Of a stretch of 33,651 nt of DNA, positions 29,494 to 33,651 are shown piece after piece (position 1 is the stretch's first letter; the number at the start of each line of letters is the position of its first letter). A program made the translations under genes and the position numbers. The notes below the pieces were generated by a model, which saw only the letters and a list, made by a program, of their open reading frames with translations, was not told where the DNA came from and searched no databases. The DNA is from Synechococcus sp. PNGco_S_binSS4 (GTDB taxonomy: Bacteria; Cyanobacteriota; Cyanobacteriia; PCC-6307; Cyanobiaceae), in the NCBI GenBank assembly GCA_007571085.1, contig RKSC01000032.1, positions 1-33,651 on the forward strand. The letters run 5' to 3'.

Positions 29494-30951
29494 GTGGTTA
29501 CTGATGCTCCCATTCCTTGGAAAGCCATCCACGCCCGCTTTGCCGCAGTGCTAGGGGCCAAGCGCCTGCTGCGGCGCCGGGAGGATTTGCTGGCCTACGA
29601 CTGTGATGGGCTAACCCTACACCGTTGCGCTCCAAAACTGGCGGTGCTTCCCCGCTCCACTGCTGAGGTGGTGACCACCGTGAAGCTTTGCGCCCAGCTG
29701 GGACTTCCTTTTGTGGCCCGTGGCAGTGGCACTGGACTCTCTGGTGGGGCCATTCCCAGTGAGGAGGCAGTGCTGATCATCACCAGTCGGATGCGCCGCA
29801 TTCTGGACATTGACCTGGATAACCAGACCATCCTAGTGGAGCCCGGTGTCATCAACAACTGGGTCACCCGGGCTGTGGCGGGGGAGGGTTTCTACTACGC
29901 CCCTGATCCCTCCTCCCAGACCGTATGCAGCGTCGGCGGCAACATTGCCGAGAACTCTGGCGGTGTCCACTGCCTAAAATATGGAGTCACCAGCAACCAT
30001 GTGCTGGAATTGGAGGTGGTGTTGCCCGATGGCACCTTGACCCGCTTTGGTGGCCATGTGGCTGAGATGCCCGGCCTGGACCTGAGGGGTCTATTTATTG
30101 GCAGTGAGGGCACCTTGGGCATTGCCACCGCCATCCGCCTGCGCCTCTTACGCCAGCCAGAAACCGTGCGGGTGCTGCTGGCTGATTTTGCCGCCATGGA
30201 AGATGCGGGGGACGGGGTGTGCCGTATCACTGCAGCTGGCATTTTGCCCGCAGGGATGGAAATAATGGACAACTTCACCCTCAATGCCACTGAGGATCTG
30301 CTGCAGACCGGTGTTTATAACAGGAGTGCGGTGGCAGCCCTGCTGGTGGAGCTGGATGGCCATGCCGCTGAAGTGGAAGCTGCCTGCCAGCAGGCCAAGG
30401 ATCTGCTCATGGCCGCCGGAGCCCAGAACCTACAGTGGGCCAAATCCCCGGAGGAGTGTGAGCGCCTCTGGAAAGGCCGCAAAGCAGCCTTTGCCGCCAT
30501 GGGACGCCTCAGTCCTAGTTATTACGTGCAGGATGGGGTGGTACCCCGCAGCACCCTCCCCCAAGTGCTAAAGGCCATTGCAGACATCAGCCACCGTTAT
30601 GACCTACCCATTGCCAATGTGTTCCATGCCGGGGATGGGAATCTGCACCCCTTAATTCTTTACGATCACCACGAGCCAGCCATCATCCAGCGGGTGGAAC
30701 AAGCCGGTGCAGACATCTTGCGCCTCTGTGTAGAGATGGGAGGCAGCATTACCGGGGAGCATGGCATCGGTGCGGACAAACGCAATGCCATGGCCTTGAT
30801 GTTCAGCGCCATGGATCTGGACACCATGACCCGGGTGCGCCAAGCCATTGACCCTCAACAGCGGGCCAATCCCAACAAACTCTTCCCCACCCCAACGGGC
30901 TGTGCAGAGGCTTCCCGGCGCTCTTTGCGGGTGCCGGTGGACGTGTATTGA
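29494..30951 (+). CDS. glcD: Glycolate oxidase/dehydrogenase subunit GlcD (FAD-linked)
   Basis: LPFVARGSGTGLSGGAIPSEEAVLI, VEPGVINNWVTRAV, SVGGNIAENSGGVHCLKYGVTSNHVLELEVVLPDG, VFHAGDGNLHPLILYD, GSITGEHGIGADKRNAM. Confidence 0.95.
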   Translation: MVTDAPIPWKAIHARFAAVLGAKRLLRRREDLLAYDCDGLTLHRCAPKLAVLPRSTAEVVTTVKLCAQLGLPFVARGSGTGLSGGAIPSEEAVLIITSRMRRILDIDLDNQTILVEPGVINNWVTRAVAGEGFYYAPDPSSQTVCSVGGNIAENSGGVHCLKYGVTSNHVLELEVVLPDGTLTRFGGHVAEMPGLDLRGLFIGSEGTLGIATAIRLRLLRQPETVRVLLADFAAMEDAGDGVCRITAAGILPAGMEIMDNFTLNATEDLLQTGVYNRSAVAALLVELDGHAAEVEAACQQAKDLLMAAGAQNLQWAKSPEECERLWKGRKAAFAAMGRLSPSYYVQDGVVPRSTLPQVLKAIADISHRYDLPIANVFHAGDGNLHPLILYDHHEPAIIQRVEQAGADILRLCVEMGGSITGEHGIGADKRNAMALMFSAMDLDTMTRVRQAIDPQQRANPNKLFPTPTGCAEASRRSLRVPVDVY

Positions 30952-30968
30952 GCAACCGATTCATCTGA

Positions 30969-32330
30969 ATGGCCACCAGCAACCAACCCCCAAAATCCAC
31001 CGAGGAGGACCTGACAGATCCCTGTGTCCATTGCGGCTTCTGCCTCAGCACCTGTGCCAGCTATCGGATTCTGGGAACGGAAACCGACTCCCCCCGTGGC
31101 CGCATTCATTTTCTCAAGGCAGTGGAGGCGGGGGAGCTGAACCTGTCATCGGTGGCAGAGCATTTTGAGTCCTGCCTGGGTTGTTATGCCTGTGTCACCG
31201 CCTGCCCCTCCGGTGTGCGCTATGACCAGCTCATTGCCCAGGTGCGACCTCAGCTAAAGGACCTGCCGGTGCGCGGCCCATGGCAGCGGTTGTTTCGTGG
31301 GGCACTATTTTCCCTGCTGCCCTATCCGGGCCGTCTGCGCCGTCTCCTGGCCCCCCTGCGCTTTTACAGCGGCTCCTGGGTGCAAGCCATGGCCCGCCGT
31401 AGCCGTCTGACCCAGCTGTTTGGGCCAGAAATTGCTGCCATGGAGCGCCTGTTGCCCCCCTTATCAGCCGGCAGCTTCCAGGATGCCTTGCCCCTACTCA
31501 GACCTGCCCAGGGGCAACGGCGGGCCCGGGTGGGTTTGGTGTTGGGCTGTGTGCAACGCCTATTTGACCACCAGGTGAATGGAGCCGTGGTGCGGTTATT
31601 AACAGCCAATGGGGTGGAGGTGGTGATACCCCCCCAACAGGGCTGTTGCGGAGCGGTGACAGATCATCAAGGAGAAACAGCCCACACTGAAAAACTGGCC
31701 CAAGACCTGATGGCCTCCTTTACCGCCGTTGTGGGTCACCAGAAGCCTGCAGGTGCTCAACCCTTGGATGCCATTCTGGTGGCCGCTTCAGGCTGTGGTC
31801 ATACCCTCAAGCAGTACGACCGCATTCTTTCTGCCCACCCCACCTTGGCTGAGGAGGGCCGCACTTTTGCCAGGGGAGTGCGAGATGTGCAGGAATTTTT
31901 GGCGGAGCTGGGGTTAAGTGCTCCCCTCCATCCCCTATCACCAGAGCCCCTGCGCGCTGTAATCCATGACCCCTGTCATATGCTCCACGGCCAGGGCATT
32001 GCCGCTGCCCCACGGCGCCTCCTGGCTGCCATCCCTGGCCTCACCCTGGTTTCCCCCATGGATGCCGGGGTGTGTTGTGGCAGTGCCGGCATCTACAACA
32101 TTGTCCAACCTGAGATTGCATCCCAATTGGGGGAAGAGAAATGTGCTGATTTGGTAGCCACCGGTGCCCAGCTATGTGTTTCAGCCAACATTGGTTGCAC
32201 CCTGCAGTTGAAACAGACCATGGGCACCATGGACAGCCCCCTCCCTATTCTCCACCCAGCCCAGCTGCTGGACTACAGCACCCGGGGCCTGCAGCTCCCC
32301 GCTGAGTTGTTTCTCAAGGGCAGTGGTTGA
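30969..32330 (+). CDS. glcF: Glycolate oxidase iron-sulfur subunit GlcF
   Basis: DPCVHCGFCLSTCASYRILGTETDSPRGRI, ESCLGCYACVTACPSGVRYDQLI (two 4Fe-4S motifs), CCG motifs (QQGCCGAVTDHQGE, DAGVCCGSAGIYN); 17 bp downstream of glcD. Confidence 0.95.
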   Translation: MATSNQPPKSTEEDLTDPCVHCGFCLSTCASYRILGTETDSPRGRIHFLKAVEAGELNLSSVAEHFESCLGCYACVTACPSGVRYDQLIAQVRPQLKDLPVRGPWQRLFRGALFSLLPYPGRLRRLLAPLRFYSGSWVQAMARRSRLTQLFGPEIAAMERLLPPLSAGSFQDALPLLRPAQGQRRARVGLVLGCVQRLFDHQVNGAVVRLLTANGVEVVIPPQQGCCGAVTDHQGETAHTEKLAQDLMASFTAVVGHQKPAGAQPLDAILVAASGCGHTLKQYDRILSAHPTLAEEGRTFARGVRDVQEFLAELGLSAPLHPLSPEPLRAVIHDPCHMLHGQGIAAAPRRLLAAIPGLTLVSPMDAGVCCGSAGIYNIVQPEIASQLGEEKCADLVATGAQLCVSANIGCTLQLKQTMGTMDSPLPILHPAQLLDYSTRGLQLPAELFLKGSG

Positions 32331-32435: not shown

Positions 32436-32471
32436 ACAATCTCAAGAAAATCTACAATCTCAAGAAAATCT
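32436..32471 (+). repeat. Perfect 18-nt tandem duplication acaatctcaagaaaatct x2 upstream of the LRR gene
   Basis: Direct reading acaatctcaagaaaatct acaatctcaagaaaatct. Confidence 0.95.
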
Positions 32472-32538
32472 GAAGATCCTAGGAAATCCTCAATCCCAGG
32501 AGAAGCATGCTAAGCTTGCTTCAGCTTTGGACATTGCC

Positions 32539-33651
32539 ATGTCTTGGGCTTGCCAGTCTCTCCTGTCAAAGCAAGTGTTGCACCTTGGGTCGGGCATCTT
32601 GAGTGCTGCTCTCTGGGGGACAGCTGTTGTAGTGGAGCCTGTTCAGGCCCACCATGGTATCACCATAGATGGAACTAGCTACTCTTGCGCCTTCCTTGGC
32701 CATCATCATTCTTACTGGTACGATAATACTTGTGATTTGCAAGGAGATCTAGGAACTAGGACAACCCTGCCGGCAGGTTTATTTAAGCATCTTCCTAATC
32801 TACGATATGTCTTTCTGAATCAAAACAATCTAACCAGCTTGCCATCAGGTCTATTCAGTGGTCTTCCCAACCTGGAAGAGATCAGACTACAATATAACAA
32901 CCTGAGCACCGTGCCGCGAGATATATTCCAAGGATTTTCTAGCTTGAAAAATATCTATCTCTATGGCAATAATCTGACTAACTTGCCAGAAGATTTATTC
33001 AGTGAGCTTTCCACGTTAAGAGTAATCAGCTTGCATAACAACGACCTAACCACTATGCCAGCAGATTTATTTGGTGGTCTTCCTAATCTGATAGGCATTT
33101 TTGTGAGTAATAATAATCTATCTTGCCGACCTGCGCTTCCGTCAGGTAAGTCATTTTTTGATGAGTATGACAGGGCTGATACTCTGACCGCTAGTTTGCC
33201 AGTTTGCGAGGGAGAGATTCCTTTAGAATACATGCCTCCACAAAATTACAATAACATTGCAAGTCAGACCACTGTCAGCCTTGCTAATGAATATCAATTC
33301 TATGATAATGATTTCTCCCCATATCCATCTCCAGGAGGGAATCTAACCTATACAGTGAAAAATAGCAATGGAGATGTGGTGACAGCATCCATATCTAATG
33401 GTGTATTAACAATAACACCTGTTGGCTTGGGCTATTCTACAATCACAGTCAACCTTACTGGCACTGGACAGTGGACGGAAAAAGATCTGATGATCGGAAG
33501 CGATCCAATCGTTTACCGCAAATCCGTTGATCTCACTTTCAATGTCTCCCAAGATGGTGAACATAATGTCTCCCAAGATGATGAACAGCTCCAAGGAGAA
33601 GGTGAACAACCCCAAGGAGGTGAACATAATCTCCTCCCAGGAAACGAGCAA
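32539..33651 (+). CDS. Secreted leucine-rich-repeat protein with Ig/cadherin-like domain, truncated by the right window edge
   Basis: Open frame from ATG 32539 to the last base (371 codons, no stop): putative signal peptide MSWACQSLLSKQVLHLGSGILSAALWGTAVVVEPVQA|HHG, five 24-aa LRRs, cap LSCRPALP...LPVCEG, then LTYTVKNSNGDVVTASISNGVLTITPVGLGYSTITVNLTG. Missing from the ORF track because it lacks a stop in the window. Confidence 0.9.
   Translation, partial: MSWACQSLLSKQVLHLGSGILSAALWGTAVVVEPVQAHHGITIDGTSYSCAFLGHHHSYWYDNTCDLQGDLGTRTTLPAGLFKHLPNLRYVFLNQNNLTSLPSGLFSGLPNLEEIRLQYNNLSTVPRDIFQGFSSLKNIYLYGNNLTNLPEDLFSELSTLRVISLHNNDLTTMPADLFGGLPNLIGIFVSNNNLSCRPALPSGKSFFDEYDRADTLTASLPVCEGEIPLEYMPPQNYNNIASQTTVSLANEYQFYDNDFSPYPSPGGNLTYTVKNSNGDVVTASISNGVLTITPVGLGYSTITVNLTGTGQWTEKDLMIGSDPIVYRKSVDLTFNVSQDGEHNVSQDDEQLQGEGEQPQGGEHNLLPGNEQ
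32767..33126 (+). repeat. Five tandem 72-nt leucine-rich repeats within the LRR CDS
   Basis: LPAGLFKHLPNLRYVFLNQNNLTS / LPSGLFSGLPNLEEIRLQYNNLST / VPRDIFQGFSSLKNIYLYGNNLTN / LPEDLFSELSTLRVISLHNNDLTT / MPADLFGGLPNLIGIFVSNNNLSC. Confidence 0.95.
33541..33588 (+). repeat. Two 24-nt repeats encoding NVSQDGEH / NVSQDDEQ, followed by further E/Q/G-rich low-complexity sequence
   Basis: aatgtctcccaagatggtgaacat / aatgtctcccaagatgatgaacag. Confidence 0.9.

What the first reader, a model, noticed from the sequence alone, without database searches (positions are those of the whole stretch)
32539..33651. Secreted eukaryotic-type LRR protein with Ig/cadherin-like domain, missed by the ORF track
Sequence: the frame is open to the window end and carries a signal-peptide-like N-terminus, five 24-residue LRRs with consensus LPxxLFxxLxxLxxLxLxxNNLxx, a two-Cys cap, a beta-rich region and a polar repeat tail. 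Established knowledge: the 24-residue LPxxxFxxLxxLxxLxLxxNxLxx form is typical of extracellular LRR proteins in eukaryotes, and LRR, ankyrin and TPR proteins are recurrent eukaryotic-like factors in symbionts, including sponge-associated bacteria. Inference: this could be a host-recognition, adhesion or anti-phagocytosis surface protein of a symbiotic picocyanobacterium. It is the only clear accessory gene in an otherwise housekeeping window.
Basis: partly seen in the sequence, partly recalled or inferred. Interest (0 to 1): 0.72.

Follow-up and report, generated by a model that had tools for sequence, protein, structure and literature searches.

The report
Surface leucine-rich-repeat protein of sponge cyanobacterium
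The contig ends inside a real gene for a secreted, animal-like leucine-rich-repeat protein, one of about a dozen in the genome of a cyanobacterium that probably lives in sponges; its relatives are built to be held on the cell surface by a built-in outer-membrane barrel, as expected of host-binding proteins.

Summary
In detail: an ORF from ATG 32539 runs open to 33651, the end of contig G000:C81. It encodes a signal peptide, a two-Cys N-cap, five 24-residue LRRs (LRR_8 7.7e-26), a two-Cys C-cap, an Ig-like (Big_9-like) domain and a polar/acidic tail. It is not unique: the 1.68-Mb genome has LRRs on nine contigs plus three N-terminal stubs, mostly cut at contig ends. LRR_8 occurs in 8/8 genus members but 14/242 other Cyanobiaceae; one inspected non-symbiont protein is a different kind (ROCO GTPase). 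The genus lacks rmlC in 10/10 genomes, a published mark of the sponge symbiont "Ca. Synechococcus spongiarum", whose LRR proteins are already reported. What I did not find described: single ORFs in five genomes join LRRs to a C-terminal autotransporter-type beta-barrel, one in another genus fitting "Ca. S. feldmannii". The barrel profile hit none of 22 other Cyanobiaceae genomes tested. Most likely the window gene is an LRR passenger displayed on the outer membrane to bind a host or neighbour ligand. Its own barrel is inferred (3' end missing) and binding is untested. Some paralogues are broken. An interesting variant of a known theme.

The parts
32436..32471 (+). two exact tandem copies of ACAATCTCAAGAAAATCT in the gap between glcF and the LRR gene; function unknown
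   Evidence: the repeat finder
32539..33651 (+). 5' part (371 codons) of the LRR gene, open to the end of the contig; GC 0.436 and GC3 0.391 against 0.583 for the rest of the window and GC3 0.65-0.68 in glcF/glcD
32539..32649 (+). predicted Sec signal peptide (residues 1-37, ...EPVQA|HH)
   Evidence: sequence; junction conserved in paralogues C38, C91, C110, C120, C119, C9, C85. No SignalP run
32650..32766 (+). N-terminal cap with two Cys (C50, C65), family signature HHxxTIxGxxxxC...NxCDL
   Evidence: DNA 83-85% identical over 46-61 nt in paralogues
32767..33126 (+). five 24-residue leucine-rich repeats (residues 77-196)
   Evidence: Pfam LRR_8 7.7e-26; unit parse; AF2 and Foldseek
33124..33207 (+). 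C-terminal cap with two Cys (C196, C223), CRPALPSG...LPVC, shared with paralogues C38, C110, C120 and C1
33235..33552 (+). Ig-like / Big_9-like beta domain (residues about 233-338)
   Evidence: homology to G008:C1/C7 domain; no Pfam hit by itself; AF2 low confidence
33553..33651 (+). polar/acidic repetitive tail, cut by the contig end; placed like the acidic linker before the barrel in G008:C38
   Evidence: role as linker is inference
30969..32330 (+). upstream neighbour, glcF-like gene (glcD-like gene 29494-30951 before it); not part of the system, fixes the location

Best explanation
The gene is the 5' part of one member of a multigene family of LRR passenger proteins in a probably sponge-symbiotic picocyanobacterium ('Ca. 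Synechococcus spongiarum' lineage). Proposed working: (1) the signal peptide sends it through Sec [inferred from sequence]; (2) a C-terminal autotransporter-type beta-barrel, seen in single ORFs with LRRs in homologues but lying beyond the contig end here, inserts in the outer membrane and displays the rest outside [shown as domain architecture for homologues, inferred for this gene]; (3) the Ig-like domain and polar linker act as a stalk [inferred]; (4) the capped LRR solenoid binds a ligand, most likely a sponge cell or matrix molecule, for adhesion or for escaping phagocytosis [inferred]. Paralogues differing in repeat number and surface residues would give a set of binding surfaces.
For: LRR identity. 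About a dozen family loci in the genome. LRRs and barrel in one ORF: own C150 (1238 aa), G007:C72 (PF03797 36.8 bits), G008:C33 (PF03797 43.9 bits), G009:C2 (complete 1826-aa ORF, barrel by profile A1), G073:C47 (2192 aa, barrel by A1). Own C39, Calx-beta-like repeats plus barrel, passes PF03797. G008:C38 shows signal peptide, Ig-like domain, acidic repeats and barrel in one ORF, the arrangement expected beyond the window tail (PF03797 25.3 bits, just below 26). Host bias: LRR_8 in 8/8 genus members against 14/242 others; barrel profile in 9/10 genus members plus G073 against 0/22 other Cyanobiaceae tested. Sponge-symbiont identity: rmlC missing in 10/10, as published (PMC6506613); SH4 is reported with 9 LRR genes (PMC8225149). 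LRR core codons are conserved between repeats, pN/pS 0.16, so the fold has been maintained.
Against: The 3' end of this gene is missing, so its own barrel is not seen, and its post-LRR domain differs from the Calx-beta-like repeats of its own paralogues. The C150 barrel has no Pfam hit alone and the barrel profile found no PDB relative. Fewer barrel ends (C150, C39, C110, C22) than LRR N-termini are assembled. Concave-surface positions are the most variable, but pN/pS there (0.73) does not differ clearly from convex positions (0.63), so selection for binding diversity is not shown. Paralogues C1 and C135 are broken. No ligand, localisation or expression data.
Confidence: 0.6

Rival explanations
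1. A secreted or periplasmic LRR protein without a barrel: the signal peptide exports it, and it is released or held by another anchor.
For: No barrel is seen for this gene; its post-LRR domain is Ig-like rather than the Calx-beta-like repeats of own paralogues; fewer barrels than LRR N-termini are assembled.
Against: Homologues with LRRs, or with the Ig-like domain plus acidic linker, carry a barrel in the same ORF.
Confidence: 0.2
2. A decaying remnant: the copy is a pseudogene or is becoming one in a reducing genome, with no present function.
For: Paralogue C1 is frameshifted in its N-terminal cap and C135 is in pieces; G009 has only an LRR N-terminal relic downstream of glcF; an SD-like AGGAG lies before an out-of-frame ATG at 32507 rather than before 32539.
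Against: 371 codons are open here; LRR core codons are conserved across the family, pN/pS 0.16; the sequence at ATG 32539 (ATTGCCATG) matches the start of paralogue C38.
Confidence: 0.12
3. A surface binding protein aimed at other bacteria, phage or self-aggregation rather than at the sponge.
For: LRR solenoids bind many ligands; nothing here identifies the ligand. Same display route as the best explanation.
Against: Presence tracks the probable sponge-symbiont lineages within Cyanobiaceae, though sponges are also dense microbial habitats, so this does not exclude it.
Confidence: 0.2
4. Assembly chimera joining glcF to an unrelated LRR fragment.
For: The gene lies at a contig end and differs sharply in GC (0.436 against 0.583); genes downstream of glcF differ among congeners.
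Against: Other own LRR loci are similarly low in GC (0.41-0.48), including C1 inside a contig; G009 also has an LRR relic just downstream of glcF; the tail matches no other place in the genome.
Confidence: 0.05

Closest known systems
LRR 'eukaryotic-like proteins' of 'Ca. Synechococcus spongiarum' and 'Ca. S. feldmannii' (PMC6506613, PMC8225149)
   Same: Same kind of organism by genus-wide rmlC loss; similar number of LRR genes (9 reported in SH4); listed there as host specific with unknown site of action
   Different: Those papers count LRR domains; in the passages read, autotransporter domains are described for FN3/cadherin proteins, not for LRR proteins
FN3/cadherin proteins with autotransporter domains of the same symbionts, e.g. 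277cV_123 (PMC6506613)
   Same: Eukaryotic-like passenger plus autotransporter domain in the same symbionts
   Different: Passenger is FN3/cadherin, not LRR
LasAI/LasAII of 'Ca. Liberibacter asiaticus' (PMC3708911)
   Same: Described as LRR-bearing passengers on autotransporters
   Different: Repeat is a 40-plus-residue unit, no signal peptide predicted, prophage-borne; not a 24-residue LRR
Animal extracellular LRR ectodomains (LGR4, LRRC15, IGFALS, VLRs, Toll)
   Same: 24-residue LPxxLFxxLxxLxxLxLxxNxL repeats; best PDB sequence hits (7.5e-47) and fold hits
   Different: Window caps have two Cys each, not the usual Cys-rich LRRNT/LRRCT pattern; common ancestry was not tested
Leptospira LRR proteins (LIC12759, LIC11098, LIC12234)
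   Same: Bacterial LRR proteins among the best PDB hits (5.5e-39; fold hit 4tzh at 36% identity)
   Different: Shared caps or a barrel were not seen in these matches
Listeria internalins (from general knowledge)
   Same: Order of cap, LRR and Ig-like domain; surface-bound host-binding protein
   Different: 22-residue LRRs and cell-wall anchoring in a Gram-positive; repeat length differs here

Membership tests
Extracellular 'typical' class LRR protein | tandem 24-residue repeats with consensus LPxxxFxxLxxLxxLxLxxNxLxx | tested here: met
   five units; LRR_8 7.7e-26
Extracellular 'typical' class LRR protein | export signal | tested here: inconclusive
   signal-peptide-like N-terminus conserved in the family; no predictor or experiment
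Extracellular 'typical' class LRR protein | Cys-rich LRRNT and LRRCT caps of the animal type | tested here: not met
   only two Cys on each side and no LRRNT/LRRCT Pfam hit
Type V (autotransporter) secretion protein | C-terminal beta-barrel in the same chain, for the window gene | not testable with these tools
   gene cut at 33651 by the contig end; no overlapping contig found
Type V (autotransporter) secretion protein | C-terminal beta-barrel in the same chain, for LRR homologues | tested here: met
   PF03797 above cut-off in G007:C72 and G008:C33; profile A1 in G009:C2 and G073:C47
Internalin family | 22-residue LRRs | tested here: not met
   24-residue units
Internalin family | LPXTG-type wall anchor | not testable with these tools
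   3' end missing
ROCO (LRR-Roc-COR) GTPase, the kind found in a non-symbiont Cyanobiaceae genome | Roc and COR domains after the LRRs | tested here: not met
   present in G138; absent from the 371 residues here, which have a signal peptide and an Ig-like domain; the missing 3' part is unseen
'Ca. Synechococcus spongiarum' lineage (organism) | loss of dTDP-rhamnose pathway gene rmlC | tested here: met
   PF00908 absent in own genome and 9/9 congeners
'Ca. Synechococcus spongiarum' lineage (organism) | 16S rRNA or named-genome match | not tested

The most novel reading that the evidence does not exclude
Two sponge-symbiotic cyanobacterial lineages share a family of autotransporters with animal-like LRR passengers, gained or exchanged between lineages and kept as a variable set of outer-membrane receptors that decides which sponge cells accept or spare them.
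Probability: 0.2. Interest if true: 0.75.

Novelty: new variant of a known kind. Interest (0 to 1): 0.42.

Why it matters
LRR 'eukaryotic-like' proteins of sponge symbionts are usually counted, with location and function left open. Linking them to an outer-membrane barrel in single ORFs says where they would act (outside the cell) and gives a direct test: display the LRR passenger on a laboratory strain and measure binding to sponge cells or uptake by phagocytes.

Tried and rejected
(1) Finding the rest of the gene: the last 99 bases match nowhere else in the genome and no fetched locus shares its end; own barrel fragments on C39, C110 and C22 begin in Calx-beta-like repeats or mid-barrel, with no recognisable overlap. 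(2) Naming the organism by a genome-contig scan: first try not answered, second gave only a Bacteroidetes LRR hit. (4) Positive selection on the concave face: ratio 0.73 (bootstrap 0.57-0.95) against 0.63 (0.52-0.75) on the convex face, not distinguishable. (5) Barrel profile against PDB: no hit; NCBIfam on the barrels: nothing relevant. (6) Phage origin: only weak LRR hits in two phage records. (7) NCBIfam hits of the window protein to type III effectors and a Leptospira fibronectin-binding protein are far below their cut-offs and reflect generic LRRs. (8) Promoter and terminator scan: sites lie inside the gene; not used.

Full report
WHAT IS THERE. The last 1.1 kb of the window is an open frame from ATG 32539 to base 33651. 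The window is a complete contig, G000:C81, so the gene is cut by the assembly. The translation reads: signal-peptide-like N-terminus ending ...EPVQA|HH; N-cap with two Cys; five 24-residue LRRs at residues 77-196; C-cap with two Cys; a beta-rich domain; and a Gln/Glu/Gly-rich tail. Pfam LRR_8 gives 7.7e-26. The single-sequence AlphaFold2 model is poor overall (mean pLDDT 46.9) but forms five evenly spaced strands over the LRRs, and Foldseek matches animal LRR ectodomains and a Leptospira LRR protein. By sequence, the best solved relatives are mostly animal ectodomains, with Leptospira LRR proteins among them. This resemblance does not show common descent.

THE START. The sequence at ATG 32539 (ATTGCCATG) also occurs at the start of paralogue C38, which supports this start. 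An SD-like AGGAG lies before another ATG at 32507, which is out of frame, so a frameshift near the start cannot be fully excluded.

NOT ALONE. The same genome (1.68 Mb, 169 contigs, 95% complete) has LRR_8 matches on nine contigs: C38, C169, C91, C150, C135, C120, C1, C110 and the window contig C81. Three further contigs carry N-terminal stubs of the family: C119, C9 and C85. Most are cut at contig ends. Where the N-terminus is present they share the ...QA|HHxxTIxG...CDL cap or a variant of it, and, where reached, the CRPxLPxG...LPVC cap or a variant; behind it several have Calx-beta-like repeats. Their GC is 0.41-0.48 against 0.58 for the rest of the window. C1 is frameshifted in its N-cap and C135 is in fragments. 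Between repeats, structural core positions have pN/pS 0.16. Concave positions vary most by entropy, but their ratio (0.73) is not clearly above that of convex positions (0.63). So the fold was maintained, and diversifying selection is not shown.

THE BARREL. Own contig C150 carries LRRs, a Calx-beta-like region and a C-terminal region that aligns at 46% and 36% identity with the C-terminal regions of own C39 and of G007:C72. C39 and G007:C72 pass Pfam Autotransporter PF03797 (33.2 and 36.8 bits, cut-off 26). G008:C33 also passes (43.9 bits) in one ORF with LRRs. G009:C2 (1826 aa) and G073:C47 (2192 aa) carry LRRs and a barrel found by the three-sequence profile A1. Thus five genomes hold at least one ORF joining LRRs and barrel. 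C150 alone has no Pfam barrel hit and A1 finds no PDB relative, so the barrel is called autotransporter-type by homology. The own genome also encodes another PF03797 protein on C153 at 100.6 bits.

WHY THIS BEARS ON THE WINDOW GENE. Its domain after the LRRs is not Calx-beta-like. It resembles a domain behind LRRs in G008:C1 and C7 (33% identity over 64 aa) that is just below the Big_9 cut-off. In G008:C38 a related domain (39% identical to the G008:C1 domain) is followed in one ORF by acidic repeats and a barrel (PF03797 25.3 bits, just under cut-off). The window's polar tail stands where that acidic linker stands. The window gene's own barrel is therefore an inference.

WHO CARRIES IT. With LRR_8, 8 of 8 same-genus genomes at 85% completeness or more (own included; G004 with a single match) are positive, against 14 of 242 other Cyanobiaceae (Fisher p 9.5e-10, ignoring relatedness). 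One inspected non-symbiont protein, in G138, is a ROCO GTPase; G240 and G080 have similar repeats and C-termini by eye. Only G073, of another genus, has many LRR matches (40) and also 25 barrel matches. Profile A1 hits 9 of 10 genus members and G073, but none of 13 other-genus Cyanobiaceae and none of nine other LRR-positive ones.

WHICH ORGANISM. The genus lacks rmlC (PF00908) in 10 of 10 genomes, while most relatives have it. Loss of the rhamnose pathway is a published mark of 'Ca. Synechococcus spongiarum' (PMC6506613), although strain m9 was reported to have rhamnose genes (PMC5331489). G073 (2.5 Mb, about 100 contigs, 94% complete) fits the published statistics of 'Ca. S. feldmannii' 277cV. 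G001 (1.4 Mb, about 180 contigs, no hit with the window protein) fits m9, which is reported without LRRs. These identifications are inferences. SH4 is reported with 9 LRR (PMC8225149). One published report places close relatives of m9 in anoxic blue-hole water without a host (PMC12997750), so membership in the genus is not proof of a sponge host.

LOCATION. glcF homologues in five congeners are followed by differing genes. In G009 a relic of an LRR N-terminus lies several hundred bases downstream of glcF. This mildly supports the window's linkage as real.

VERDICT. LRR proteins in these symbionts are already known. The addition is the LRR-plus-barrel architecture shared by two symbiont lineages, which I did not find described in the library searched; most subscription papers are not held, and the main S. 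spongiarum genome papers (mBio 2014 and 2015) were not read. Function remains untested.

Noticed in passing
L027:4300-5537 (G000:C1) and L025:1-1300 (G000:C135): Two LRR paralogues of the same genome are broken: C1 by a frameshift in the N-cap, C135 in several short frames.
   Followed up: partly
L113:3304-6912 minus strand (G003:C62): A congener ORF joins a CAP (cysteine-rich secretory protein) domain, Ig-like domains and the same type of barrel: another eukaryotic-like passenger.
   Followed up: no
L080:509-2665 minus strand (G000:C153): PF03797 autotransporter (100.6 bits) whose N-terminus reads FGDSLSDPGN, suggestive of a GDSL esterase passenger.
   Followed up: no
L110:941-5230 minus strand (G138): LRR protein of a non-symbiont Cyanobiaceae genome is a ROCO GTPase (Roc, COR-A, COR-B), unlike the symbiont kind.
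   Followed up: partly
L094:3204-3638 (G009:C61): Relic of an LRR gene N-terminus downstream of glcF, the same neighbourhood as in the window.
   Followed up: partly
window 32436-32471: Exact 18-bp tandem repeat (two copies) just upstream of the LRR gene.
   Followed up: no
L064 and L107: Runs of N in the fetched sequence inside the LRR or barrel regions (withheld or unresolved stretches), so repeat counts there are incomplete.
   Followed up: no
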